A DNA stretch of 50,370 nucleotides from positions 1-50,370 of the IMG/VR virus record IMGVR_UViG_3300021057_000003; one strand, written 5' to 3'. Positions 5,400 to 32,062 of the stretch are shown in pieces (the stretch's first letter is position 1; the number at the start of each line of letters is the position of its first letter). A model generated the notes under the pieces. It ran no database searches. It saw only the letters and a program-made list of their open reading frames with translations, and was not told where the DNA came from. The position numbers and the translations under genes were made by a program. The DNA is from a virus.

Positions 5400-5708
5400 A
5401 TGAAACTCTACGCCACAGTTAGCTCAGAGCGAGCCACAAAGGGACAGGGAGGGAATGAGTTTTTGGAGATAGTCATTTCCGGCGCTCATCAAACAGAACT
5501 CATCACACTCAAATTGCTTCCAAACGGAAGCGGTTATGAGTTGCAAGGATGGACACATGACAATCACTTCGTGCAAGTCATGATTGAAGAGAACCTAACA
5601 AAAGGTGAAAGGCAAAAAGGCAAAGCATGCGCAAAATGCGGAGCAGGAACAATGCACGATGGAAATTGTGCAGGGTGCTGGGCTCCGCAGGAGTTGTGCA
5701 CATGCTAA
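5400..5708 (+). CDS. Hypothetical protein with C-terminal zinc ribbon
   Basis: A 102-aa protein if read from ATG 5400, directly after the previous stop; a longer upstream frame overlaps the 4940 gene and is less likely. The C-terminus has CAKCG...CAGC...CTC, a probable Zn-binding knuckle, after a beta-rich domain. It is the last gene of the cassette, 17 bp before the terminator. Confidence 0.65.
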   Translation: MKLYATVSSERATKGQGGNEFLEIVISGAHQTELITLKLLPNGSGYELQGWTHDNHFVQVMIEENLTKGERQKGKACAKCGAGTMHDGNCAGCWAPQELCTC

Positions 5709-5725
5709 ACGTCAAAAAGCGAAAG

Positions 5726-5760
5726 ACCGGCTAATTCAAAACGAATTAGCCGGTTTTTTG
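5726..5760 (+). terminator. Strong rho-independent terminator
   Basis: A perfect 12-bp stem, ACCGGCTAATTC (5726-5737) paired with its complement at 5743-5754, with loop AAAAC and a run of T. It closes the plus-strand cassette. Confidence 0.93.
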
Positions 5761-6069
5761 TTGTCCATCCCCACACTATCCACAGTCTCCCAAAATGGAC
5801 GCAACTTTCAAACACCGAGGGAACAGAGCCCCCTGCCCTAACCTGGCCGGTCGCAGAAATATTTCAATACCCCTCCCCCTCTCCTCGCTCCTCGCTCCTC
5901 CCCGACCGAAGCTTGCGAAGGAAGGAGGGAAGAACACTTCCCGAAGGAGGAGGTCACGGCGCAGGAGGTTCGAAATCCGCTGTGGATAGAGGGGAGATGA
6001 GGTGGAATGCGTCCCCATAGACAATTCCCCTCACCTAGACGCCGTACTTATGGGTGTGGACAAGGGAGG
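5761..6069. other. Non-coding, structured 309 bp with paired DnaA-like boxes
   Basis: No credible gene. CTATCCACAG (5776-5785) and its exact complement CTGTGGATAG (5980-5989) form a 10-bp inverted repeat, each arm a one-mismatch DnaA box. Between them lie a C/T-rich tract with repeated CTCGCTC (about 5870-5905), a GGGAAG-AACA-CTTCCC hairpin near 5927-5942 and purine-rich GGAGG repeats. 5990-6069 contains GAGGGGA...TTCCCCTC. This could be a replication or titration site or a leader region. Confidence 0.45.
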
Positions 6070-9554: not shown

Positions 9555-9992
9555 TTAACTAATCAGGTCAGGGTTCTCGTAGATGTTGCCTAAAACCTCG
9601 TATTGGGAGTCACTCATGCCAAATCCCATCATGAGATCACCAGCAGCATTGACTATGTTGTAGTCGCACCCTTCTGTGTCCCACTGCACCAGTCCTGTTG
9701 CTTGCAGTCTGTCTGCGCCATAGTTTCTTCGCGCTGTTCGTTGTATTTGTTCGTCCTCGTAGTTGAGTCGTGTGTCACAACGAACAACATCCCCCTCGTA
9801 AATCTCCTTCCCGTTCTTGTCCTTGAGGCCGGTGTATTGCATTACCTCGTACTCTGCGTGTAGGTCGCAGTCGCCGTTCTCATCAACGAACGGATAAGGG
9901 AAGCCCTCGTATGAAGCATCATCTAAACTGAACTCACTACCCATCTTCTTTTTCTTCTTGTCCCACGCCCTAAACTTAATTTCCCGTTTCAT
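9555..9992 (-). CDS. YopX-family protein
   Basis: A 145-aa protein if read from ATG 9992. It starts MKREIKFRAWDKKKKKM and contains VMQYTGLKDKNGKEIYEGDVV and YEVLGNIYENPDL, the classic YopX signature. The family is common in phages of many hosts and its role is unknown. A longer frame upstream reads across the terminator at 10014-10043 and is unlikely. Confidence 0.9.
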   Translation of the reverse strand: MKREIKFRAWDKKKKKMGSEFSLDDASYEGFPYPFVDENGDCDLHAEYEVMQYTGLKDKNGKEIYEGDVVRCDTRLNYEDEQIQRTARRNYGADRLQATGLVQWDTEGCDYNIVNAAGDLMMGFGMSDSQYEVLGNIYENPDLIS

Positions 9993-10013
9993 ATACACCC
10001 ACCCTACACCACA

Positions 10014-10043
10014 CACAAAAAAATGCACACCCGAAGATGTGCA
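10014..10043 (-). terminator. Terminator with TTCG loop
   Basis: On the minus strand TGCACATC-TTCG-GGTGTGCA (one G-U pair) is followed by seven T. The G-U pair exists only in the minus-strand RNA, which gives the direction. It ends the 10078 to 14750 transcript. Confidence 0.9.
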
Positions 10044-10077
10044 TAAGTCCAGATGCCCGAAGGCCGCTGGTTCTGGG

Positions 10078-10338
10078 TCAGTCCTGGTTAGCGATGAACT
10101 CTTCCGCCCTCTCGGCCACCTTGGCAAGCGAGAGGAGGTCGGAGTGGCCGTAGCTGTCACCATCGTCTTTCCAGTTCCCTTCGCGATCCTTGTAGGACCG
10201 GGAGAAGGTCGTGTTGTAGTGCGGCTTGTCAGTGCCGTTCTTCCAGACGCTGGCTTTCACCAGGCCGATGCGGAACGTCGCAACCGGGAGCGTCTTCTGC
10301 TCATGTGCCGGTGCCGGTGCCGGGGGTGCTTTTGCCAT
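10078..10338 (-). CDS. Conserved phage/plasmid hypothetical protein
   Basis: An 86-aa protein from ATG 10338 with SD AAGGAG 7 nt upstream; a longer frame to 10395 lacks such a site. After an Ala/Pro-rich start it reads VATFRIGLVKASVWKN...YNTTFSRSYKDREGNWKDD...HSDLLSLAKVAERAEEFI, a conserved small protein I know from phages and plasmids near replication genes, without known function. The strand pattern then helix would suit a small nucleic-acid binder. Confidence 0.75.
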   Translation of the reverse strand: MAKAPPAPAPAHEQKTLPVATFRIGLVKASVWKNGTDKPHYNTTFSRSYKDREGNWKDDGDSYGHSDLLSLAKVAERAEEFIANQD

Positions 10339-10409: not shown

Positions 10410-10925
10410 TTACTTGATCTTCCGCGGCTGGTGCACTTCATCTGCCGCGAGGAAGCGGTCGATCTTGCCGTCACGGTAGACCGGGAAGACGATCCTGCCT
10501 GCGTGCGTGGACTTCGGCGGGGCGACACCGATGCCCCATGCCTTCGCATCTGCCGGCTCGATCCCGCACGCGTCGAGGAGCTCGTGCTCGGTGAGGAGCT
10601 TCGCCTGGTATGCGATCGGGTCGAAACCCTCCTTCTTCTCGGGCTTCGAGTCCAGGCTGAACTCCTTGCGGAGCGCTGCGGCCGCTTCGCCCATCTTTAC
10701 CTGCTTCACATGCGCGTAGAGGCCGGTGCAGTCACCGCCTTCCTTCTCACCGAAGCAGAAGAACTTCCCCTTCTCCGGTGTGATGGCGAGGGATCGGTGA
10801 TCCCCCTTTCCACACGGGCATTTGCACCGCTGGGTGCCTCCGTTCCCTTCGGGCTTGAGCTCCAATCCGAGGAGCTTCACCACTTCAAGGATCGGAACGT
10901 TTTCTCTGATCTGTTGAAAGTCCAC
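10410..10925 (-). CDS. CHC2 zinc-finger primase fragment (DnaG-type N-terminus)
   Basis: A 171-aa protein from GTG 10925 with a strong SD (AGGAGG). Residues 34-66 form a CHC2 finger as in DnaG primase (CPCGKGDH, FFCFGEKEGGDC; ligands about C36/38, H43, C57, C66). The rest (AWGIGVAPPKSTHAGRIVFPVYRDGKI) resembles the start of the primase RNA-polymerase core, but the protein ends before the catalytic Toprim residues. It is either a partner subunit, a DNA-binding regulator, or a truncated primase; no gene for the missing half follows. Confidence 0.8.
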   Translation of the reverse strand: MDFQQIRENVPILEVVKLLGLELKPEGNGGTQRCKCPCGKGDHRSLAITPEKGKFFCFGEKEGGDCTGLYAHVKQVKMGEAAAALRKEFSLDSKPEKKEGFDPIAYQAKLLTEHELLDACGIEPADAKAWGIGVAPPKSTHAGRIVFPVYRDGKIDRFLAADEVHQPRKIK

Positions 10926-10968
10926 GGCAACCTCCTATAAAAGAACTGTGCCGTGTACACACTAACAT

Positions 10969-11922
10969 CTAGCTTATGTACTTGAAAGGCTTGTACCCTG
11001 AGCGTTCCCACTCCACATTCAGAAGATTGAAGATCTCCTTCGGTGGATGGAAGATCTGTCCGAAGGCAGGAATGACATACGTGATGATGTAATCGCACTT
11101 GCCTTCGGGGTTTGTTGGCGAGGTAAATTCCTCTTTCACGTATCGTAGGAATTTCTGCCTGCGGGCTTCTGTAGTAGTGATGAATACGAACCTGGCCCGG
11201 CAATCCACCTTGAACATCTCCTTGTAGAGTTTTCCGCCGATGAGGAAGCGAGCTGCCCGGATCTTTGGGAAGTAGGCGTCGTGCCCCTCGGTCGCACGGT
11301 CGATTTCAAAGAAGTTCAAGTACCCTTTGTCAGTCTCAAGGTAGTTGATGCCGTCCGGGGTATATGCCCTTCCATCGAGCTCCATCTTCAAGGGATTTTC
11401 AAAGAGGTTCTTGAAGACGGGATGCTTCTGTCTCCTGGGCTCGGGCCAGCCAGCTTCCGCAAGGATCTGGATCTGCGATTTGAAGGGGACCGCTTCCTTC
11501 TGCGCCCAGTACTCAAAAGCTTCAGACACACAGCCGGAAAAGACCTGGTGCTTATGGTCTCCACGCATCGTGGGTGCGTAGGGGGAGAGCTTGTCTTCCT
11601 GCTTCAGGACCTCAAGTGCCTTGTCCGTGAGCTCGTGGACCAGTTCGTTCCAGCGGGGGTCGATCGTATGGAACTGCTTTGCAGGCCGGGAGAGGTAGCC
11701 TGCGCGTGCAAGCTGCGTGAGACGGTCGGTCGTTGAGCAGCGGTCGCGGTGGATGTGCTCGGTGAGCTTGTGGAGGTAGCTCGTCGTTGCCCTGCCCCCG
11801 TGGCAGTACATGAAGTAGAACCAGATCAAGTCCCGAGGCGTAAGCACAACATCATAGCCCCGCTCCTTCTGAGGAACGTTCCTTAGTTTCCGTCCTAAGG
11901 TGTCATGTGTCCGTACTTCCAT
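10969..11922 (-). CDS. Replication-relaxation family protein (Replic_Relax)
   Basis: A 317-aa protein. The N-terminal winged-helix part (LTPRDLIWFYFMYCHGGRATTSYLHKL...RLTQLARAGYLSRP) and a C-terminal PD-(D/E)XK-like part (YTPDGINYLETDKGYLNFFEIDRATEG) follow the Replic_Relax (PF13814) plan found on plasmids and integrative elements, where the family is tied to replication or mobilisation and has been proposed as a relaxase-like factor. It sits directly downstream of two VirD4-like ATPases and has its own promoter whose start should coincide with the ATG. Confidence 0.8.
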   Translation of the reverse strand: MEVRTHDTLGRKLRNVPQKERGYDVVLTPRDLIWFYFMYCHGGRATTSYLHKLTEHIHRDRCSTTDRLTQLARAGYLSRPAKQFHTIDPRWNELVHELTDKALEVLKQEDKLSPYAPTMRGDHKHQVFSGCVSEAFEYWAQKEAVPFKSQIQILAEAGWPEPRRQKHPVFKNLFENPLKMELDGRAYTPDGINYLETDKGYLNFFEIDRATEGHDAYFPKIRAARFLIGGKLYKEMFKVDCRARFVFITTTEARRQKFLRYVKEEFTSPTNPEGKCDYIITYVIPAFGQIFHPPKEIFNLLNVEWERSGYKPFKYIS

Positions 11923-11929
11923 CTGGGCT

Positions 11930-11958
11930 TAGATACCCAGAAATACTAGCACGGTCAA
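11930..11958 (-). promoter_or_regulatory. Leaderless-type promoter of the Replic_Relax gene
   Basis: On the minus strand TTGACC, 17 nt, TATCTA, 7 nt, ATG. Five of six -35 bases and four of six -10 bases match. A start 7-8 nt after the -10 falls on the A of ATG 11922, and no Shine-Dalgarno exists, so the mRNA would be leaderless. Confidence 0.65.
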
Positions 11959-11972
11959 TGTGCGGAATGACG

Positions 11973-13613
11973 CTAATCGTCGTTCCGTGAGTCGTCGTGC
12001 TCCGGGATGATGCGCTCCACTTTATCTGCGGCGAATCGCTCTCTGTTTTCTCGGAGCAACGCTTTGAGGTCATCGCGCTTCGGGAGCCGGTCAAGCGAGC
12101 CGTACTCTACATCAATCACCGCGCTTTGCCCGCCCTTCAGGTGGGTGAAAAACTCAAGTTTCCTGAGGCCCATAAGCGCTTCAGGCTCAGTGTGCATGTC
12201 GTCCGCAAGCGCACGCGCATCCTTCGCAGAAATACCGCAGACAGCCTTAATCGAAGTGTTGGAAATGACGGAGTGTTCAACAGTCTTGGGAATCTGCCCT
12301 AACGATTGAAACGCCAAGGTGAGCCCGAGCTTGTACTTCCGCCCTGTCTCCAAGATGTTCGAGGTTTGCTCAGACATGACGGGCGCGGCCTCGTCTATGT
12401 ACAAGAAGACGGGCAGGTAGTCTCCGCCCGGATCGCGCTCCTGGATCGCTTGGAAGATGAGCGCGGTGATGAAGCGCGTAAAGAAAGCCGACCCCTCGTC
12501 CTTTAGGAAGCTGCGGGCAGTGTTGATAAGCACCACAGAGCCGTTGTCCAGAATCTCCCGCATGTTCAGCTTGGTTCTGGGAGCTGAGAACATCCTTTCA
12601 AGGGCGGTGTTTGAAAGAATCGAATAGATCCGCCTCCTGATCTGCTCACGGGTTTCCTTGAAGCCGCTCCCCATGTATTCGTTCTTGAAAAACTCCTGGG
12701 CGGTGCGTGAGAGCTTCCCAATATGCGGAGCGTGGACCTTGAATTTATCGTCGGTGAGAAGGTCGAGGAGCGTATGGATGGTCGCGTCTTCGATCACCAG
12801 GCAGAGCCGAATGAGCATTTCAAGCGGAAGTCTCTGCTTTGCAGTGACGCTGGAATCCATTGACTCCAGGACAAACAAGAGGAGTTCGACAACCGAGTTG
12901 AAGTTCTTTTCGCGTTCGTAGGCGGTGTCTCCACCAGTATTGAAGTCAAACAGGGATAGTGCGATGGGATGGTCTACATCGGTAGGATCAATGACAACTG
13001 CACGTTCACGAGGGAAGCGGACGCGAAGGATCTTGTGGATCAAGTCCCCTTGCGAATCGAATACCACCAGCGTGCAGGGCTTGCGGAGGTCTTCTGCAAT
13101 CCACGAAGAGAGAAGCTGTGTCTTCCCGACCCCAGTTCCGCCAAGTACCAGCGTGTGTTCAAGCCTGAGTGCGTCGGGTATCTCGAATTTCGGGGGCTCA
13201 GGTGGTGGTTCGGGTTCCGGCTCAGGAGGTAGCACAGGAAGTGGGGGAGGCTCCTGATTCTTCTCAAAGTACGTGATGTACTGAAACCAGCCAGAAAGAA
13301 TAAGCGCTCCAGCGGACGCACCAAACGCAAGCCATATGAGTGTTGCGTAGAACCAAGATTCCGGTGGTTTGAACTTCTCGAATGCAAGCAATGTCGAGGC
13401 GAAGATAAGTGCTGAAAGTCCGGCAAGGATATACGTCTCAAGCGAGTATGAAACTGTAGGGGGTAAGTCGTGTGGTGTTCGAGGATTGAGGAGATTAAGC
13501 TTGATGATGCGTGTCCGTTCTACCGCGACTGCTTGTCGAGCCTTGAAGAGTTTGTAGCCGTGCCAGAAAGCAAATGCTGAAGGAACAATGAGGAGTGCAA
13601 ACAAGTACAGCAC
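11973..13613 (-). CDS. VirD4/TraG-like type IV coupling ATPase
   Basis: A 546-aa membrane ATPase. Three predicted membrane segments (about 1-22, 61-78, 87-110) and a Pro/Glu linker (121-141) precede a RecA-like motor with Walker A GGTGVGKT (158-165), Walker B VFLYIDEA (403-409) and a TraM-recognition-like tail (LAFQSLGQIPKTVEHSVISNTS). This is the layout of conjugative coupling proteins that bring DNA-protein complexes to a type IV channel. No relaxase of a known MOB family and no channel genes are present. It lies 9 bp after a second such ATPase and just before Replic_Relax. Confidence 0.85.
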   Translation of the reverse strand: MLYLFALLIVPSAFAFWHGYKLFKARQAVAVERTRIIKLNLLNPRTPHDLPPTVSYSLETYILAGLSALIFASTLLAFEKFKPPESWFYATLIWLAFGASAGALILSGWFQYITYFEKNQEPPPLPVLPPEPEPEPPPEPPKFEIPDALRLEHTLVLGGTGVGKTQLLSSWIAEDLRKPCTLVVFDSQGDLIHKILRVRFPRERAVVIDPTDVDHPIALSLFDFNTGGDTAYEREKNFNSVVELLLFVLESMDSSVTAKQRLPLEMLIRLCLVIEDATIHTLLDLLTDDKFKVHAPHIGKLSRTAQEFFKNEYMGSGFKETREQIRRRIYSILSNTALERMFSAPRTKLNMREILDNGSVVLINTARSFLKDEGSAFFTRFITALIFQAIQERDPGGDYLPVFLYIDEAAPVMSEQTSNILETGRKYKLGLTLAFQSLGQIPKTVEHSVISNTSIKAVCGISAKDARALADDMHTEPEALMGLRKLEFFTHLKGGQSAVIDVEYGSLDRLPKRDDLKALLRENRERFAADKVERIIPEHDDSRNDD

Positions 13614-13622
13614 CGAAGGCTC

Positions 13623-14750
13623 CTATACCAACTGTGATTTGCACCGGCGAATGATCTTCTGCGCCTGGTGCGTGGGAAGGTAGTTGTGCCGAGGCATGAG
13701 CATCTGCTGGCGCTTGCCGTGGATCAGGGTGTACGCCTGGTGATCGGGGAGGTCTTCAAGCTGCGGATCAGTGTTTTCTTGCGTGAGAAGGAGTTTCGGC
13801 GCAAGCCTCTCCGAGTCTTCCAAGCTGGTCCTGAATGCAACGAGCCTCATGCTCGACAGTATGGTGTCCCGCTCGTCCTCGTGCAACTGGGAAAGGAACT
13901 GCACCGCAATCGTTGTGGTGAGGTGGGGACAGCGGACGAGAAGATCCCGAAGCAAGGCAGAGGGGAAGGCGTGGGCATGGTCGATGTAGACCATGGAGCG
14001 GAGTCCGCCTACTCCGGCCGCAATGAGGGAGGTGAGAACGAGCGACCCGAGCAACTTCGTGCCGCGCAACCCCAATTCACCCTCGTTCAAGGACACAAGG
14101 ACAATCTTGTCCTTGAAGACCAATTTGTTTGTCTTTTTGTCAAGGACATCACGGATCACCGGGTCGATGAAGATTGCAAGCAATCGGGACAAAATGCTTT
14201 CAGTCTTCTCGTCGCGCTTCTTATCCTTTTCGAAGATCTCCCATTCCTCAAGGACAATGCTGTCCGATACGTGCACGAGCATTTGCTTCCGATACTCATC
14301 ATCCAAGAGGAGTGTTCGGAGATTCTTGAGGGAGCCGTATCCAGCCTCAAGGATAGAAGCGACACCGATCGTGGCGTAGCGGTCAATGCGTGTGGTTTCG
14401 ACGGCTGAGGGCCAGACCCCTTTGAACATCTCCACGATGAGGGAAGTGACGAGTGCTCGCTCGGAAGTGCGGACTCCCGCTAGGGGGTTGAAGGCAAAGG
14501 GAAAGAGCGAAGGCTTGAAGAGGATGACATCCTTCTGCCGTTCCGGGGGAATGTAGTCCAGGATGACATCAATGGCGTGCCCTTTAGGGTCAATGAATAC
14601 GCCGCTTTTGCCTTTATAGATCTGGTCTAAGAAGAGCCTGATGAGCGCTTCTGATTTCCCTGTGCCAGGCACGCCAAGGAACAGTTGATTAACCCACTTC
14701 GTGAGAAGCGGGCGATATGGCGCTTTAGGGGAGTAGTAGAAGCCCAGCAT
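13623..14750 (-). CDS. HerA/VirD4-like ATPase without membrane anchor
   Basis: A 375-aa P-loop ATPase. Walker A is GVPGTGKS (26-33), VFIDPKGHA follows at 51-59, and Walker B is MVYIDHAH (253-260), with His in place of the usual Glu after the Asp, which may lower or change ATP hydrolysis. It has a helical insert (about 100-200) and ends like VirD4 proteins (VAFRTSLEDSERLAPKLL). With no membrane helices it could be a soluble pump or pair with the next gene's membrane ATPase. The start codon lies 4 bp from a long stem-loop region (14754-15016) and has no Shine-Dalgarno. Confidence 0.8.
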   Translation of the reverse strand: MLGFYYSPKAPYRPLLTKWVNQLFLGVPGTGKSEALIRLFLDQIYKGKSGVFIDPKGHAIDVILDYIPPERQKDVILFKPSLFPFAFNPLAGVRTSERALVTSLIVEMFKGVWPSAVETTRIDRYATIGVASILEAGYGSLKNLRTLLLDDEYRKQMLVHVSDSIVLEEWEIFEKDKKRDEKTESILSRLLAIFIDPVIRDVLDKKTNKLVFKDKIVLVSLNEGELGLRGTKLLGSLVLTSLIAAGVGGLRSMVYIDHAHAFPSALLRDLLVRCPHLTTTIAVQFLSQLHEDERDTILSSMRLVAFRTSLEDSERLAPKLLLTQENTDPQLEDLPDHQAYTLIHGKRQQMLMPRHNYLPTHQAQKIIRRCKSQLV

Positions 14751-14753
14751 AGA

Positions 14754-15016
14754 GCATGTACCGTAACCTCGGTCCCCTCAAGGTGCCTGGGGACCAGGGC
14801 TTGCAGGCCCGATTAGGGTACATGCGCTGTGCTCGTTCCATGTGGAACGTGAAGAACGGTCCGTATGTATTCTACCGTGAGGAACGGGGGAATGGAGGAA
14901 CTGCCCACCGAACAGCGCCCGAGCGGAGCGCGTGGCCTTCCTACCATGAGCCCGTCCGCGGGTGAGAGTGATCTCCAGATCCGGTGGGAGGAAGGCCACG
15001 CGAGTAGCGGGCGCTG
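14754..15016. other. Long inverted-repeat element: leader RNA, oriT or single-strand origin candidate
   Basis: No ORF. Two major units. Unit 1: 9-bp stem GCATGTACC (14754-14762) with 14817-14825, enclosing GGTCCCC/GGGGACC (14771-14777/14789-14795) and GGGC/GCCC (14797-14800/14807-14810), a three-way junction. Unit 2: 9-bp stem CAGCGCCCG (14913-14921) with 15008-15016, then a perfect 14-bp stem CGCGTGGCCTTCCT (14929-14942) with 14989-15002, capped by two small hairpins. CGTTCC-ATGT-GGAACG (14834-14849) lies between. It directly precedes the two DNA-pump genes, where a plasmid would have its oriT. Confidence 0.6.
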
Positions 15017-15102
15017 TGAGGTGGAACCTGCTAGCCACGAATAGTGGTAGAGAAGCACCCATACCTATAGGGATGGGATATGGGCACGTAAAAAGCCTCC
15101 GA

Positions 15103-15540
15103 TTAGGAGGTTGCTTCTGTCTTCTTGCCTTTCTTCGTCTCAGCGAAGGGAAGGTAGGTTCCTCGTTCACCGGACATGATCTTCTGCTCTTTCTTCAGAG
15201 CATTCAGCGTGTTGCCGATTGAACCTTCAAGGGACTTGTCACCCTTTGCTCCCATGTTTTCGAGGAGCTGAGTGCGGCTGATCCCGCTAGGGTTCTGTGT
15301 GATGAGGTCGAGTACCTGTTGCTTGATGCCGGTCTTCCGTGGGCCACGGGTTTGTTTCTTCCCACGAGTAGTGGGGAGCTTGCCCTGAAGAGCGTTCACA
15401 TACGCTTCGATGGCGACGAGCTGCTTCCTGATTCCTTCTTCCTCTTCGTCCAAGGCACGTCTGCGAGGTTCCAGGTCTTCGAGCATCTTCTGTAGACGCT
15501 GTTGCTCCTGCTCCATTTGCTTCGATAGTTCCAATCTCAT
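15103..15540 (-). CDS. Coiled-coil protein with C-terminal winged helix
   Basis: About 145 aa from ATG 15540; CCAGGAG abuts this ATG, so the in-frame TTG at 15534, six bases from the SD, is the likelier start. Residues 1-70 are a charged coiled coil (MEQEQQRLQKMLEDLEPRRRALDEEEEG begins it, read in two parts), followed by a basic linker and a winged-helix domain (VLDLITQNPSGISRTQLLENMG...SIGNTLNALKKEQKI). Such proteins dimerise and bind DNA. It is a candidate regulator or DNA-binding partner of the downstream ATPases. Its stop codon overlaps a weak terminator-like hairpin (about 15093-15115). Confidence 0.65.
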   Translation of the reverse strand: MRLELSKQMEQEQQRLQKMLEDLEPRRRALDEEEEGIRKQLVAIEAYVNALQGKLPTTRGKKQTRGPRKTGIKQQVLDLITQNPSGISRTQLLENMGAKGDKSLEGSIGNTLNALKKEQKIMSGERGTYLPFAETKKGKKTEATS

Positions 15541-15586
15541 CTCCTGGTGGTGGAGCGGGGAGTATATGTGACTTCTGAGGCTCTGT

Positions 15587-15770
15587 ACATGGGGCAAGGA
15601 TTTGACGAGGATGGTCGTAAACACGGGACGTTGCAATAACGTTTGCCGCGCCACCTACTCGTATAGTCACCTTGCATTTACAGCCCAACGACCGTAAGGC
15701 GTTTCTTGTTTAAAGTGGAGACACCGGCTCCATTACTGTGCTATTTGCGTTCCTTTTACGCCACCCATGT
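15587..15770 (-). ncRNA. tRNA-shaped RNA A (184 nt)
   Basis: On the minus strand: ACATGGG (15770-15764) pairs perfectly with CCCATGT (15593-15587) as a 7-bp acceptor-like stem, followed by TG and a D-arm-like GCGT-AAAAGGA-ACGC. An extended anticodon-side arm (ACAG...CTGT enclosing a TGGAG-CCGGTGT-CTCCA hairpin and another) follows. Then GCAAGG/CCTTGC (15675-15670/15599-15594) is placed where a T stem belongs, next to an internal loop TGACTAT/CAAAT and an inner stem ACGAG/CTCGT. RNA B at 29237 has the same architecture and identical internal-loop sequences. No valid anticodon or normal T-loop, so it is not an ordinary tRNA. Confidence 0.6.
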
Positions 15771-16059: not shown

Positions 16060-16527
16060 CTACAAATGGTTGACCTTTGGTTTACCTATAGGTCTGCCGC
16101 GTTTGCGGAGCATGTACTCCTGTTGCTTGCGATTCTTGCAAGTCCGACACACACGCCACGCCCTGCGGCCGCGGACTCGAATCTTCAGGTTGTCCCCGGA
16201 AAGGGGGTGTCCTGCATCACAGTGGGTAGCTCGCGCATACTTGGCTGATGGTGCCTCACCGCGCAATGTGTTCGTTTCTTGTGAAACAGGCTCCAAGTGG
16301 AGAGGATTAACACAGATTGGGTTCCTACAGAGATGGTCGATGACCTTCCCGAAGGGAATCCGTGTGTCAGTGAAGAACTCGTAGGAGACTCTGTGCGCTG
16401 GTTTTGAGGTTCCGTTGAAATGGAACTCACCATAACCATTACCCTTCTGACTTCCTGTCCAAATCCAACATGAATCTGTCTGGTCGATTCGCGTGACGAA
16501 TCTGTCTATATCCTTTCCTTGAAGCAC
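16060..16527 (-). CDS. HNH endonuclease (HNH_3 type)
   Basis: A 155-aa protein from GTG 16527. DSCWIWTGSQKGNGYGEFHFNG, RVSYEFF and IDHLCRNPICVNPLHLEPVS form the HNH core (catalytic His in DHLC, Asn in CVNPLHL). A second Cys/His zinc knuckle (THCDAGH, RVCRTCK) and an AT-hook-like RKRGRP tail follow. Enzymes of this kind are mostly mobile homing nucleases. It is followed on its strand by the hairpin array and tRNA-shaped RNA A. No intron is apparent. Confidence 0.9.
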   Translation of the reverse strand: MLQGKDIDRFVTRIDQTDSCWIWTGSQKGNGYGEFHFNGTSKPAHRVSYEFFTDTRIPFGKVIDHLCRNPICVNPLHLEPVSQETNTLRGEAPSAKYARATHCDAGHPLSGDNLKIRVRGRRAWRVCRTCKNRKQQEYMLRKRGRPIGKPKVNHL

Positions 16528-16796: not shown

Positions 16797-16991
16797 CTAT
16801 CGGGGTCGCAAATCTAGAAGGCGCTGAATGTAGTCGTCTATCTCCTGCTCATCCCAGTAGGACATTCCGTTAGGGCCGTTGGGCTTTCCTGGTTCAGGTA
16901 GCTTTCCGGCCTTCACCCGTCGCTCCAAGGTAGCTTTGGCGATTCCGAGCTTTAAACAAACTTGCCTTTTATTTAACAGTCTGCGTGTCAT
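16797..16991 (-). CDS. AlpA-like excisionase/DNA-binding protein
   Basis: A 64-aa protein from ATG 16991, overlapping the integrase 3' end by 23 bp. LLNKRQVCLKLGIAKATLERRVKAGKLPEP and MSYWDEQEIDDYI form the MerR-like winged HTH of AlpA/Xis proteins, which bend attachment-site DNA and set the direction of recombination. The longer frame to 17051 lies wholly within the integrase and is less likely. Confidence 0.85.
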   Translation of the reverse strand: MTRRLLNKRQVCLKLGIAKATLERRVKAGKLPEPGKPNGPNGMSYWDEQEIDDYIQRLLDLRPR

Positions 16992-18090
16992 GCGCGATCT
17001 CCGAAGAGTCGTGCACGACGCCTTGGTAGGCGGGATTGCCACCGAAGGCACTGACGATTTTCAGGATGAATGCGCTGTAAGTCAACAATGCTTCTCGGAC
17101 TTCATCCTCATATTCGTAGCGGTTGTATGTGCGTGCGATAGGGGTGAGCGTGCCTTGGACATGGTTCAAAATCTTCTCGGTGATGTGGATGGGCACCTTG
17201 AGCCTGGCGAGGTTCGTTGAGAACGTGCGCCGGAGGTCGTGGAGCCTCCAGTTCTTCACGCCACAGAGGGCATCGAGCTTCTTCTTCTCCTCGCTCCAGC
17301 ACGGCTCTCCCAAGACGGGAAGGTGCTGTTTCATGAGCGGGGTGATCGGAAGGGTGTGGCTACGGTTGTTCTTCGTTTCCTCGAAGTGAAGGTGGGTTGT
17401 CCCTGTGCCGTACTTCGCAATCTCATTCCGACGGGCTCCAGAGAGCATGAGTACCCTGACCAGGTGGCCGTAGGGCTTGTAGTCGGTGGCGTTCCAGATG
17501 GCAACCAGCTCCTCGTCTGTGAGGACGCGTTCACGGGACTTCAGCTTGTTCGGCATGTCCACCCTGGAGAGGGGATTGACGGTCAAGATGTCCTCTTTGA
17601 CGCACCACATGAAGAAGGTGCGGAGAACCTGTTGCGCCACGTTCTGCGCCGTGTCCTTCCCTGCCAAGTCTTTCAGCTTCTCGGTTACGTCCTTGCGGGT
17701 GATGTGATCGACGCGCTTCGTGAATCCGAAGAAGTTGAGGTAGGTTTTGTAGAGGCGGAGGCTCGTTGCCTTCATTTTGTGCTTCCGAGCCTCCAGGAAC
17801 GCGTCTACGGCCTCTGGATACGGTTTTGGCGTACCAGTCGGTTTCGTGCTGGAAGACCCCGCAAAAACGATTTTTGCTCGAATGCGAGCGTCTTTGAGGG
17901 TGAGGTCGGGGTAGCGCCCGAGGGTGGTGAGCCTCCGCTCCTTCCCCGTGACCACAATGAAGGTCTTTGCGCCCCCTTGCGAGAGGCGAATGCCGAATCC
18001 ACGGAGCGTGGTGTCAAAAATGGTGAGCTGGCCCTTCTCTGGAGCCTTCAAACGCTGAATGAGCAGGTCGGTTAGTTGCGCTTTAGCCAC
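16969..18090 (-). CDS. int: Tyrosine recombinase integrase, P4 type
   Basis: A 373-aa protein from GTG 18090 (SD AAAGGAAG). The DUF4102-like arm-binding domain (residues 1-75, LTDLLIQRLKAPEKG, RLTTLGRYPDLTLKDAR) is followed by a SAM-like core-binding domain (85-170) and the catalytic domain: R220 in SGARRNE, H284 and R287 in LHDLRRTF, H310 in KILNHVQG, Y322 in ARTYNRY. All catalytic residues are present. It would insert the phage into a host attachment site; attP was not identified. Confidence 0.95.
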   Translation of the reverse strand: MAKAQLTDLLIQRLKAPEKGQLTIFDTTLRGFGIRLSQGGAKTFIVVTGKERRLTTLGRYPDLTLKDARIRAKIVFAGSSSTKPTGTPKPYPEAVDAFLEARKHKMKATSLRLYKTYLNFFGFTKRVDHITRKDVTEKLKDLAGKDTAQNVAQQVLRTFFMWCVKEDILTVNPLSRVDMPNKLKSRERVLTDEELVAIWNATDYKPYGHLVRVLMLSGARRNEIAKYGTGTTHLHFEETKNNRSHTLPITPLMKQHLPVLGEPCWSEEKKKLDALCGVKNWRLHDLRRTFSTNLARLKVPIHITEKILNHVQGTLTPIARTYNRYEYEDEVREALLTYSAFILKIVSAFGGNPAYQGVVHDSSEIAHDTQTVK

Positions 18091-23189: not shown

Positions 23190-23470
23190 TGAGTTCGAAG
23201 GAAGCGATGCTTTCCCCGAGAAATCTCTTCCAGGCCGAGATTTCAGGCCACTGGCCCAGGAACTATTAATTAGAGTCTGCGTTCCCAGCTTGCGTCTGCC
23301 CCACAGACAAAAGCACGCGGTTAGGCGTGCTTTCTTGAATCCTCTGTTCACCAACCCATGGAAAGTTGAATGACATCCCGTGAGCTGGGTCAGTGAACAG
23401 AAAATTCAGTTGTGATGATTTTGATGTCATTCACCAGTAATCATCTCACACACTCTTCATTCATTTATTC
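23190..23470. other. Structured non-coding region with kissing hairpins
   Basis: No ORF. GAAATCTC/GAGATTTC (23220-23227/23237-23244), GTCTG/CAGAC (23294-23308) and AAAGCACGC/GCGTGCTTT (23310-23318/23325-23333) are followed by two larger hairpins. Hairpin 1 is TCTGTTCAC/GTGAACAGA (23343-23351/23393-23401) extended by ACCCA/TGGGT. Hairpin 2 is GATGATT/AATCATC (23414-23420/23439-23445). The loop of 1 (TGAATGACATC, 23367-23377) is an 11-nt perfect complement of the loop of 2 (23423-23433). This allows a long kissing interaction or a pseudoknot. Confidence 0.55.
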
Positions 23471-26037: not shown

Positions 26038-26886
26038 ATGGAAATAAAACAGGAGGGGAATGATTGGTTCGCCAAGAAGAGCAAGAAAGCAAAGCGCTGG
26101 GAGCGGGTGACTGACATCATTAAGTTTGACGGTGATCTCTGTTCGGTGATGGGCCGGGCGGGCATGACCGACTTCCATGCGTACCTGGGTCGGGATGGCG
26201 ACCGTTGGCTGGAGATGTATGGGGTTACGTCCCTCCTCAACTACTGGGGAGAGAAGGAGAACCTAATTCAGTGGGCTGTGACGCAGGCTATTGAGTGCAT
26301 TCAGAGCCATCCGTTGCTGACGAATCCACTGGTGAGGCCAGAGTACGTTGTGGAGTTGTTACCTCTTGTCCTCGAAGAAGCTCGGAAAGCCCACCTCACG
26401 AACCTCAAGACCGCTGGCGACCACGGCACGAAGATGCACTCCGCGGTAGAGGAGTGGATTGAGATCCGCCTGGCAGGGACGATCATGGATGCGACCGAGC
26501 ACCACCAGCTTCAGGATTTCATCCATTGGGCTGAGCCAGTGACGTTTCTTGCGTCCGAGAAACCCCTCTACTCTCGCCGTTTGTGGGTAGCGGGGACCAC
26601 GGACTTCATCTGCGAGATTGAAGGGAAGAAGTTCATCGGAGACTTGAAGACCTCTCGCTACGCATCCTTCAAGCACTTCCTCCAGTGCGGAGCTTATGCA
26701 CTTATGTATGAGGAGATGGGCTTGGGGAAGATTGATGGCATCGTCATAGCACACATGCCGCGAGATGGTGGATTCAACGTCCTTATGGACATCGAGGTTG
26801 AGAAATACAAGCGAGGCTTTGAGATGATCGTGGAGCTCGCTCGGATGGACAAGGATAAGAGTTACTCGCTAGGTTTTGGCAAATAA
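26038..26886 (+). CDS. PD-(D/E)XK exonuclease, RecB/Cas4-like
   Basis: A 282-aa protein. YGVTSLLNYWGEKENLIQWA (about 61-80), then TKMHSAVEEW (H134), then TTDFICEIEGKKFIGDLKTS with D189, D202 and K204, and Q216 in LQCGAYALMYEEMG: the H, D, (D/E)XK and Q order of RecB-family nucleases. Phage members resect DNA ends for recombination. The following ssDNA-binding gene fits such a pathway; no annealase was recognised. Confidence 0.85.
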   Translation: MEIKQEGNDWFAKKSKKAKRWERVTDIIKFDGDLCSVMGRAGMTDFHAYLGRDGDRWLEMYGVTSLLNYWGEKENLIQWAVTQAIECIQSHPLLTNPLVRPEYVVELLPLVLEEARKAHLTNLKTAGDHGTKMHSAVEEWIEIRLAGTIMDATEHHQLQDFIHWAEPVTFLASEKPLYSRRLWVAGTTDFICEIEGKKFIGDLKTSRYASFKHFLQCGAYALMYEEMGLGKIDGIVIAHMPRDGGFNVLMDIEVEKYKRGFEMIVELARMDKDKSYSLGFGK

Positions 26887-26890
26887 AAAA

Positions 26891-27049
26891 ATGAACATAG
26901 ACATCAGTTTGGCGAACGGGTGGATGGGAGGATACTTCCCTCTCATTGAAGGTGCGATTGTGAGAACAGAAGAAGGCTGTTGGTGCGCGGGAGTGGGCTT
27001 CTGCGGCTTCTCACTTGTTATCGGAATCCACACTCACGACTTCGATTAG
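26891..27049 (+). CDS. Small Cys/Gly-rich protein
   Basis: A 52-aa protein (GWMGGYFPLIEGAIV...GCWCAGVGFCGFSLVIG). It starts 5 bp after the nuclease stop in an A-rich context. No family recognised. Confidence 0.5.
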   Translation: MNIDISLANGWMGGYFPLIEGAIVRTEEGCWCAGVGFCGFSLVIGIHTHDFD

Positions 27050-27100
27050 TACGCGACCGCAAGTGTCGTTAAACTACGGTTAATAAATAGCACAAGTAAA

Positions 27101-27703
27101 ATGATTAAGGCACCAAGTATGCAAAGTGAAGCAAAGGAGTTAGTACCAGCAGGAAACCACATTGCACGACTTTTTAAGATCGTGAACATTGGGACAGTCG
27201 AGACACCATTTAAAGATGAAGAGACCGGAGAGCCGAAGGTGCAGCCTAAGGTACGGCTGTATTTCGAGCTTCCGCTCAAAACACGCACATACAAGCAGGA
27301 TGGGGAAGAGGTGACGACACCTCATGTCATTGGGAAGAAGTACACCCTCTCCCTTTTCAAAGGAAAGCAGGTTGCAAAGCTTCGCACCGTTGCTGAGGCC
27401 ATGATTGGCACAGCCCTCACGGATCAGGAAGCGGAGAACTTTGACGTTGAAAGTCTTCTTGGCCTTCCGTGTATGGTCCAGGTGACGCACGAGAAGCTGA
27501 AGGACGGCACTGAGTACGCGACGATCGCGAACGTGGCGTCAGTTCCTGAGGGAATGGAAGCTCCAGGCCAGGTGAATGCGTCAGTCGTGATTGATGTGAA
27601 CACCGCAAGTCAGGAGGAAATCGGAGCCCTCAATGAGTTCATCCGAGCTGAGATCGAGAGTTCGGCAGAGTACAAGCAGCGATTTAGCAGCGTAGAACTC
27701 TAG
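27101..27703 (+). CDS. Phage single-stranded-DNA-binding protein
   Basis: A 200-aa protein following the layout of phage OB-fold ssDNA-binding proteins: PAGNHIARLFKIVNIGTVET, KVRLYFELPLKT, YTLSLFKGKQVAKLRTVAEAMIG, LLGLPCMVQVTHEKLKDGTEYATIANVASVP. The C-terminus is acidic-rich but lacks a clear bacterial-type tip. It sits after the RecB-like nuclease and is probably the replication/recombination SSB. Confidence 0.75.
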   Translation: MIKAPSMQSEAKELVPAGNHIARLFKIVNIGTVETPFKDEETGEPKVQPKVRLYFELPLKTRTYKQDGEEVTTPHVIGKKYTLSLFKGKQVAKLRTVAEAMIGTALTDQEAENFDVESLLGLPCMVQVTHEKLKDGTEYATIANVASVPEGMEAPGQVNASVVIDVNTASQEEIGALNEFIRAEIESSAEYKQRFSSVEL

Positions 27704-31246: not shown

Positions 31247-32062
31247 TTATTCGAAGATGATTACGTTGTTCAGCGCAGTTCCAGCGGGGGCATCGGGGGC
31301 ATCCCACGGGAGACCTGATCCGCTGTTGTATAGGTCGGTGATTTCTGCGCTGGTGAGTTTCTTGTTCCAGATGCCGACTTCATCAATGAGGCCATCAACG
31401 TACTCGCTCTGTTGGCTATTGGCTCCAATCTCGAACTGACGAGAAGAGTTGAAGGTGGAGGTTCCGAGGCCGGTGACGGTGCCGATACTGGAGCCGTTCA
31501 CAAAGAACTCCACAGAGCCAGCAGCCGCGTCGTAGACCATGGCGATGTGATACCAGGTGGCTGTGGTGAAGGCATGGTTGCGGTAGTTATTGGTCGAAGC
31601 AGAGCCGTCTGCCGAATGATTCATTCCCAAAGACAGTACGTTGCCGGAATCGCGCGCAATGCCAAATCGGTATGCTCGTTGGTTCGAGGTGCTTGACCAC
31701 TTGGAGATAACGGGGTCCATCGTGAATGCCCCAGAAGGCAGGCTCTCAGGATTGGTCCAGGCAGCAATAGACATGTTTCCCGTGATGTCGAGTCCGGTCT
31801 GCGAGGCATCAAGGATTGAGAGGTATTCGGAGGTGTCCTGTTCATGATCGCTTGCGTTCCCCTGCTTCCCTGTTCCGAAGAGGACGGTGTTGTTGTCGGT
31901 GAGGTGGTTCGTGGAGTCGGAGTCATTGCGCGTACCTGAGGTCTCTTCAAGTCTCCAGTACGAGACGAGGTTCACCGGCAGGTTCGGATCGTCCTTTACA
32001 TCAGTCGCAGCAAAGGAGGCGAATGGACAAAGGAGTGTGAGAAGGAGAAGAAGCTTTTTCAT
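31247..32062 (-). CDS. Exported LamG/concanavalin-like lectin protein
   Basis: A 271-aa protein. A signal peptide (MKKLLLLLTLLCPFASFA) is followed by one LamG-like jelly roll: LVSYWRLEETSGT, SIAAWTNPESLPSG, WYHIAMVYDAAAGSVEFFVNGSSIG and DGLIDEVGIWNKKLTSAEITDLYNSG. Such domains bind sugars. A signal peptide on a phage structural-operon protein is unusual; it may decorate the infected cell surface, or the leader may be a membrane tether. It overlaps the next gene by 4 bp. Confidence 0.8.
   Translation of the reverse strand: MKKLLLLLTLLCPFASFAATDVKDDPNLPVNLVSYWRLEETSGTRNDSDSTNHLTDNNTVLFGTGKQGNASDHEQDTSEYLSILDASQTGLDITGNMSIAAWTNPESLPSGAFTMDPVISKWSSTSNQRAYRFGIARDSGNVLSLGMNHSADGSASTNNYRNHAFTTATWYHIAMVYDAAAGSVEFFVNGSSIGTVTGLGTSTFNSSRQFEIGANSQQSEYVDGLIDEVGIWNKKLTSAEITDLYNSGSGLPWDAPDAPAGTALNNVIIFE

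What the first reader, a model, noticed from the sequence alone, without database searches (positions are those of the whole stretch)
10410..14750. Conjugation-type DNA-handling module inside a phage genome
Two VirD4/HerA-like ATPases (one with three membrane helices and a Pro/Glu linker, one soluble), a Replic_Relax protein and a CHC2 primase fragment form one minus-strand block next to a long inverted-repeat element. On plasmids and integrative elements such genes move single-stranded DNA between cells. No MOB relaxase or channel genes are present. This phage may be mobilisable by a host type IV system, or use the pumps for its own replication, segregation or entry.
Basis: partly seen in the sequence, partly recalled or inferred. 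Interest (0 to 1): 0.82.

Follow-up and report, generated by a model that had tools for sequence, protein, structure and literature searches.

The report
DNA-transfer gene cassette in temperate phages
This phage, like several otherwise unrelated phages, carries next to its integrase a set of genes that plasmids use to nick their DNA and hand it to another cell, so it may be able to spread by conjugation (or use the same machine to copy or pump its DNA) as well as by making virus particles.

Summary
The block is real and accurately located. From 14750 down to 10410 on the minus strand lie a short soluble ATPase (ATP2), a longer ATPase with three N-terminal hydrophobic segments (ATP1), a Replic_Relax protein (RR) and a CHC2 zinc-finger protein. 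Pfam Replic_Relax is the family of the MOBC relaxases: CloDF13-type MobC matches it at 4e-22 and shares RR's invariant H, PD and E residues. RR is predicted as a winged helix plus a PD-(D/E)XK-type nuclease. ATP1 is closest in structure to the conjugative coupling protein TrwB (Z 28), ahead of HerA (23) and FtsK (17). MOBC plasmids have the same gene order, coupling protein then MobC. The cassette (integrase, ATP1, RR, CHC2) recurs in five other phage records with three or more types of packaging genes, one a prophage in a tRNA-Arg gene. A nested double inverted repeat (14905-15024) recurs as a candidate nick or binding site. Best reading: a MOBC-type relaxase/coupling-protein cassette of temperate phages, possibly for conjugative mobilisation. 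Transfer is untested, and carriers are not enriched for type IV channels. Similar gene pairs are already reported in Bacillus phages.

The parts
13623..14750 (-). ATP2: 375-aa soluble T4CP/HerA-superfamily ATPase, own subfamily of about 400-aa proteins; Walker A intact, Walker B Asp-His
   Evidence: phrog_5156 2.8e-22; separate clade of 37, grouping with L016/L059 proteins with support 1.0; 33 of 37 have DE, the window DH
11973..13613 (-). ATP1: 546-aa coupling-protein-like ATPase, three N-terminal hydrophobic segments and a Pro/Glu linker
   Evidence: PF02534, PF10412, TraG-D_C; AF2 pLDDT 83; best PDB match TrwB Z 28, 343 aligned; profile match to MOBC-plasmid T4CPs, prob 96.6, E 5e-10
10969..11922 (-). 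RR: Replic_Relax protein, MOBC-relaxase family; winged helix plus PD-(D/E)XK-like domain, invariant H125, D190, E206
   Evidence: PF13814; invariant residues in 51 sequences shared with MobC; AF2 pLDDT 88.5; Foldseek
10410..10925 (-). CHC2 zinc-finger protein (DnaG zinc-binding domain; too short for the primase TOPRIM core)
   Evidence: PF01807 4.7e-8, TIGR01391 7e-10 over 4-103; orthologues downstream of RR in the other cassettes
14905..15024 (.). nested double inverted repeat (outer 14905-14921/15008-15024, inner 14929-14946/14985-15002): candidate nick or binding site
   Evidence: one per record in G002, LSUCC0112 prophage end, G010, L095; none in 1.25 Mb shuffled
14746..14833 (.). second inverted repeat overlapping the ATP2 start codon
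   Evidence: 21-nt arms, 86% complementary; RNA fold z -5.2
15103..15654 (-). 183-aa coiled-coil protein between the repeat and the integrase; role unknown
   Evidence: only coiled-coil-type Pfam hits
16969..18090 (-). tyrosine integrase, neighbour of the cassette in the phage records that have it
   Evidence: PF00589, PF13356, phrog_1 2e-38; orthologues in G002, G008, G010, G011, G012, beside the cassette or at the other prophage end, which adjoins it on circularisation

Best explanation
The block is a MOBC-type relaxase plus coupling-protein cassette carried beside the integrase of temperate phages. RR (relaxase-like, winged helix plus nuclease) would bind a site on the excised, circular prophage, most likely the nested inverted repeat at 14905-15024, and nick one strand. 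ATP1, a membrane-anchored TrwB-like ring, would take over the nicked DNA and pump it, assisted by ATP2. CHC2 may help start the complementary strand. The likeliest outcome is conjugative mobilisation through a type IV channel supplied by another element, as for plasmid CloDF13 (MobB plus MobC, no channel of its own). Shown by computation: gene identities, predicted folds, family membership, conserved cassette, conserved repeat. Inferred: nicking, binding to the repeat, pumping, and transfer between cells.
For: RR and CloDF13-type MobC both match PF13814 above its cut-off. H, PD and E are shared by RR and 4 MobC proteins under three alignment methods. RR model: winged helix (MarR Z about 10) followed by an alpha-beta-beta-beta-alpha-beta domain with the PD and E where that fold has them; weak Foldseek hits to FokI, EcoO109I and the nickase Nt.BspD6I. 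ATP1: TrwB top structural match; profile match to the T4CPs beside MobC. MOBC plasmids have T4CP immediately upstream of MobC, as ATP1-RR here; MobB of CloDF13 also has three N-terminal membrane helices (PMC7431656). The ATPase-RR pair recurs in plasmids, integrative elements and phages. Six phage records with three or more types of TerL/structural genes have integrase-ATP1-RR-CHC2. LSUCC0112 prophage: 38-bp att repeat in tRNA-Arg, cassette at the end next to att, nested repeat between. The few mobilizable plasmids with their own VirD4 also carry MobC (PMC5704250).
Against: No VirB4 in the virus records searched; VirB4 not enriched in carriers (2 of 8 genomes; 41 of 149 in one carrier's family). 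Direct RR-MobC profile comparison is weak (score 24.2, P 0.014; 1 of 100 column-shuffled controls scored higher). Predicted membrane segments are absent from ATP1 of several sister cassettes (L084, L095, L098; none N-terminal in L059). The repeat in G002 lies about 10 kb from the integrase, and none was found in G011 or G012. No experiment.
Confidence: 0.45

Rival explanations
1. Replication and maintenance module: RR nicks or initiates replication of the circular prophage or infecting genome, CHC2 helps priming, and the ATPases separate or resolve DNA at the membrane. No transfer between cells.
For: Bacillus Tyroviruses, Kirov and pumilus phages carry Replic_Relax, most with an ATPase beside it, and their authors propose plasmid-prophage maintenance (PMC9703825, PMC9658697, PMC10454425). 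Microcystis phage Mwe-JY31 has ParA, ATPase, RR-like and Rep_3 genes together; D6E has a partition gene beside its ATPase. CHC2 is constant in phage cassettes. No other replication initiator was recognised in the window.
Against: No ParA/ParM or Rep gene found in the proteins scanned; an integrase is present and the nearest relative is integrated in tRNA-Arg. A membrane-anchored TrwB-like ring is an odd replication part. CHC2 lacks the catalytic core.
Confidence: 0.33
2. Channel-independent DNA donation, as proposed for ICEth1 of Thermus (TdtA HerA-like ATPase plus NurA nuclease): the ATPase exports prophage DNA without a type IV system.
For: ATPase plus nuclease pair on an integrative element without channel genes; ICEth1 precedent (PMC5365140); most carriers lack VirB4.
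Against: ATP1 is nearer TrwB than HerA or TdpA; the nuclease is of a different family from NurA; several ATP1 relatives show no membrane segment.
Confidence: 0.1
3. Defence or exclusion system of the prophage: HerA-type ATPase plus nuclease, like SIR2-HerA or DUF4297-HerA.
For: PADLOC mad8 E 1.8e-13 for ATP1; HerA defence complexes among structural matches.
Against: Best matches are T4CPs; RR has no PADLOC match and is a MOBC family protein; the cassette sits with integrase and CHC2 and also occurs on plasmids.
Confidence: 0.07

Closest known systems
CloDF13-type MOBC mobilization region (MobB coupling protein + MobC relaxase)
   Same: T4CP gene immediately upstream of a PF13814 protein; no channel genes; three hydrophobic segments in the coupling protein; shared H, PD, E, (D/E)R residues
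   Different: on a temperate phage with integrase; an extra short ATPase and a CHC2 gene; RR is longer and distant in sequence; oriT and transfer not shown
Bacillus Tyroviruses (gp17 type IV secretion protein + gp18 replication-relaxation), phages Novomoskovsk/Bolokhovo, Bacillus phage G
   Same: T4CP/FtsK-like ATPase with Replic_Relax in a phage; the window RR model matches phage G gp146 over its length and ATP1 matches gp156
   Different: Tyroviruses carry ParM and Xer genes and are thought to have a plasmid prophage stage; here an integrative phage with CHC2 and a nested repeat, proteobacterial relatives, very low identity
Sulfitobacter and Methylomagnum plasmids (NZ_CP081110, NZ_AP019788)
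   Same: ATP1 at 36-37% identity plus Replic_Relax, the latter plasmid also a CHC2 gene
   Different: no phage genes annotated in the parts read; typed 'non-mobilizable' by MOB-suite
ICEth1 of Thermus (TdtA + NurA)
   Same: ATPase-nuclease pair on a tRNA-integrated element that donates DNA (PMC5365140)
   Different: HerA-type ATPase, NurA nuclease, not a phage

Membership tests
MOBC relaxase (PF13814; CloDF13 MobC, pAD1 TraX) | match to PF13814 above the gathering score | tested here: met
   35.9 bits vs 25.3; MobC itself 79.6
MOBC relaxase (PF13814; CloDF13 MobC, pAD1 TraX) | restriction-endonuclease-like fold with N-terminal winged helix | tested here: met
   model pLDDT 88.5, element order as expected; winged helix Z about 10; nuclease part supported only by weak Foldseek E-values
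MOBC relaxase (PF13814; CloDF13 MobC, pAD1 TraX) | conserved active-site type residues | tested here: met
   H125, P189-D190, E206 align with all four MobC; catalytic residues of TraX not checked, paper not held
MOBC relaxase (PF13814; CloDF13 MobC, pAD1 TraX) | nicks its oriT | not testable with these tools
   needs biochemistry
Type IV coupling protein (VirD4/TrwB) | RecA-like motor nearest to TrwB/VirD4, with Walker A and B | tested here: met
   TrwB Z 28.0, 3.2 A, 343 residues; VirB4 27.7 (a tie), HerA 23.0, FtsK 17.4; KT and DE motifs
Type IV coupling protein (VirD4/TrwB) | N-terminal transmembrane domain | tested here: met
   three segments in the window protein, low-confidence helices in the model; not found in several sister cassettes
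Type IV coupling protein (VirD4/TrwB) | works with a T4SS channel | not testable with these tools
   no VirB4 in the five virus records searched; not enriched in host genomes
HerA translocase | N-terminal beta-barrel HAS domain | tested here: not met
   residues 1-140 of the ATP1 model are helical or coil, no strands (low confidence there)
Integrative mobilizable element (T4CP-bearing type) | integrase, relaxase and functional oriT, no channel | tested here: inconclusive
   integrase and relaxase-family gene present; nested repeat only a candidate oriT
Phage-plasmid (plasmid prophage) | partition and plasmid replication genes | tested here: inconclusive
   none among the proteins scanned, but not every small ORF was scanned
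HerA-type defence system | defence effector partner beside the ATPase | tested here: inconclusive
   only the ATPases match PADLOC; RR has no match

The most novel reading that the evidence does not exclude
A group of integrative temperate phages of Proteobacteria carries its own MOBC relaxase, coupling-protein pair and transfer origin, and so has two routes of horizontal spread: virions, and conjugation of the excised prophage. The two-ATPase arrangement would be a new form of coupling complex.
Probability: 0.3. Interest if true: 0.85.

Novelty: new variant of a known kind. Interest (0 to 1): 0.62.

Why it matters
Phages and conjugative elements are usually treated as separate kinds of mobile DNA. 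In a survey of P1-like phage-plasmids, relaxase genes or oriT were absent from all but two (PMC10879196). Here a relaxase-family gene and a coupling-protein-like ATPase sit with the integrase in six phage records with three or more types of packaging genes. If the cassette works in transfer, temperate phages could move without lysis, between cells that lack the phage receptor. If it works in replication or segregation, it would give a first function to a gene pair that is annotated only as 'replication-relaxation' and 'type IV secretion' in many phages. Either way the question becomes directly testable, with a named candidate site and candidate active-site residues.

Tried and rejected
Single-protein scans of IMG/VR with ATP1 and ATP2 found no relatives; an alignment query did. 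tblastn with RR found no phage. phmmer of the ATPases against PDB sequences gave nothing useful. Defence reading: rejected as best because the hits are to the ATPase fold only. Packaging ATPase: rejected; a separate TerL is at 1096-2628, and STIV B204 scores lower than TrwB. A DNA profile of the repeat half-sites finds L016, L015, L098, L059 and L095 but not the window copy: symmetry is conserved better than sequence. RR against MobC by hhalign alone is not significant beyond doubt. Rfam and tRNA scans of the window were empty. CloDF13's own record lacks intact mobB/mobC reading frames, so a 94% identical plasmid was used. No NCBIfam model fits RR. A promoter/terminator scan of the region showed no more promoter-like sites than shuffles.

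Full report
WHAT WAS CHECKED. The window is a 50,370-base IMG/VR virus record. It has a large terminase, a major head protein, portal, internal virion protein and a tyrosine integrase. Among the nearest terminases are those of Pelagibacter podophages such as HTVC103P, at about 33% identity. The four genes of the finding lie at the stated places on the minus strand, with gaps of 9, 50 and 43 nt.

GENE IDENTITIES. CHC2 zinc finger: PF01807 E 4.7e-8. RR: PF13814 E 1.1e-8. ATP1: PF02534 2.7e-8, PF10412, PF01935, TraG-D_C. ATP2: no useful Pfam hit, but phrog_5156 2.8e-22, the same family as ATP1 (5e-32). A tree of 124 ATPases splits into a long form (87, median 709 aa) and a short form (37, median 404 aa), so ATP1 and ATP2 are two old subfamilies. 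In both, the window protein groups with those of LSUCC0112 (L016) and a Lysobacterales genome (L059). In the window ATP2 alone the Walker B pair is Asp-His; 33 of 37 short forms have Asp-Glu.

RR IS IN THE MOBC RELAXASE FAMILY. Replic_Relax is not just a replication label. A MobC protein of the CloDF13 type, annotated as 'MobC family replication-relaxation protein' on a plasmid typed MOBC, matches PF13814 at 4e-22. A survey of streptococcal IMEs lists PF13814 as the MobC relaxase superfamily (PMC5357655). MOBC relaxases are described as related to PD-(D/E)XK restriction endonucleases, and TraX of pAD1 has an N-terminal winged helix (PMC12857230). In 51 relatives of RR, H125, D190 and E206 never vary. 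In joint alignments by three methods these columns, and P189, hold H, D, E and P in all four MobC proteins too. The structure model (pLDDT 88.5, pTM 0.86) has a winged helix at about 26-111 (MarR-type matches, Z about 10) and then the strand-helix order of a PD-(D/E)XK domain. Foldseek lists FokI, SdaI, EcoO109I, BstEII and the nickase Nt.BspD6I, but with weak E-values (3e-3 to 0.3). Among viral models the best full-length matches are gp146 of Bacillus phage G (1e-7) and a Bacillus phage JL protein. Caveat: the direct profile comparison with MobC is weak (score 24.2, P 0.014; one of 100 column-shuffled controls scored higher), so the case rests on the Pfam model, the residues and the fold together.

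ATP1 IS COUPLING-PROTEIN-LIKE. In the PDB the best match of the ATP1 model is TrwB (Foldseek 1e-13; Z 28.0, 3.2 A over 343 residues). VirB4 is practically tied in Z (27.7), followed by the Legionella coupling complex (26.7), HerA (23.0) and FtsK (17.4). The profile also matches the coupling proteins encoded beside MobC (prob 96.6, E 5e-10). Three N-terminal hydrophobic segments parallel the three-helix membrane domain of MobB of CloDF13 (PMC7431656). Several sister cassettes lack such segments in ATP1, so membrane anchoring is not a constant feature. In MOBC plasmids the T4CP gene lies directly upstream of mobC, as ATP1 lies upstream of RR.

THE CASSETTE IN OTHER ELEMENTS. An ATP1 alignment found 125 relatives in genome contigs (80 kept) and 7 in viral contigs, mostly Alpha- and Gammaproteobacteria. 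RR homologues lie in 55 of the loci compared, and three arrangements appear. (i) Phage type: ATP2, often a small gene, ATP1, RR, CHC2, with an integrase upstream where the locus extends that far (window, L016, L059, L084, L095; without a recognised ATP2 in L098-L101). (ii) Rhodobacterales elements: up to four small genes, ATP1 of about 691 aa, RR, often with ATP2 and a serine recombinase or an integrase nearby. (iii) ATP2, small gene, ATP1 of about 900 aa, RR not detected. Two plasmids carry the pair as well. Six phage records have integrase, ATP1, RR and the CHC2 gene: the window and G002 share structural genes (TerL 53%, head protein 56%), G008 has a different TerL, portal and head set, and G010, G011 and G012 a third type of TerL (phrog_38). 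The cassette is therefore kept, or exchanged, across different phage bodies. The LSUCC0112 prophage lies between 38-bp direct repeats, one inside tRNA-Arg (186618 and 223324 on its contig); its integrase is at one end and ATP2 at the other, with the nested repeat between ATP2 and the att repeat.

THE REPEAT ELEMENT. Window 14905-15024 has an outer pair (17 nt) and an inner pair (18 nt) of inverted arms. It is the strongest-folding 150-nt stretch in the window after G+C correction, z -6.0 as single-stranded DNA. Nested pairs occur once each in G002, the LSUCC0112 prophage end, G010 and L095, and never in 1.25 Mb of shuffled sequence. Looser matches are in L059 and L084. Inner arms stay complementary within a copy (17/18, 19/19, 18/22, 21/22, 20/21) while copies differ from each other (8 to 15 identical positions). 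Its position varies: in G002 it is about 10 kb from the integrase end, and G011 and G012 have none. It is a candidate relaxase site or oriT, not a proven one; a replication origin or regulator site is also possible.

MECHANISM. By established knowledge of MOBC systems, RR would nick one strand of the circular excised prophage, and ATP1 would couple the nicked DNA to a channel. CloDF13 does this with a borrowed T4SS. No VirB4 was found in five of the virus records. VirB4 occurs in 2 of 8 carrier genomes and in 41 of 149 genomes of one carrier's family; four further carriers in that set (G022, G072, G106, G143) are not among the 41. Carriers are thus not enriched for channels. That leaves mobilisation possible but unsupported by association, and keeps the replication/maintenance rival close. 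Bacillus phage authors favour the maintenance view for the same pair (PMC9703825, PMC9658697); the Tyroviruses carry a ParM gene, of a kind not found here.

VERDICT. Observation confirmed; interpretation partly supported, with the relaxase gap filled. New variant of a known kind: a MOBC relaxase and coupling-protein cassette, with a second ATPase and a nested repeat, in integrative phages. The step of greatest interest, transfer between cells, is inferred.

Noticed in passing
window 9555-10163: YopX-family protein next to the cassette; relatives occur in G010, G011 and G012 phages too.
   Followed up: partly
window 16060-16527; L016 10357-10926: HNH endonuclease genes near the cassette (in L016, HNH plus AP2 between RR and CHC2), possibly homing endonucleases.
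   Followed up: no
window 5551-5800 and 23301-23450: Next most strongly folding stretches of the window after the repeat element; not explained.
   Followed up: no
window 26038-27703: An exonuclease (phrog_298) and a phrog_862 protein, a plus-strand pair amid minus-strand genes; NinG-like, endonuclease VII-like and HNH genes nearby.
   Followed up: no
window 31247-32062: Concanavalin A-like lectin domain protein in the structural region, possible host recognition.
   Followed up: no
L018/L097 (G009, 34 kb): IMG/VR record that matches Phaeobacter marinintestinus, with the module, integrase and a DNA methylase but no terminase match: perhaps a non-phage integrative element called viral.
   Followed up: partly
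L009 4058-4158; L050 4556-4677: Nested inverted repeats also on the Methylomagnum plasmid beside its Replic_Relax gene and in a Rhodobacterales element.
   Followed up: no
G072:C1: One genome of the surveyed family holds three full-length ATP1 copies, suggesting repeated integration of such elements.
   Followed up: no
L041, L045, L072, L082 and others: ATP1 forms of about 900 aa with ATP2 and a small gene upstream but no detected RR: a third arrangement without a known nuclease partner.
   Followed up: no
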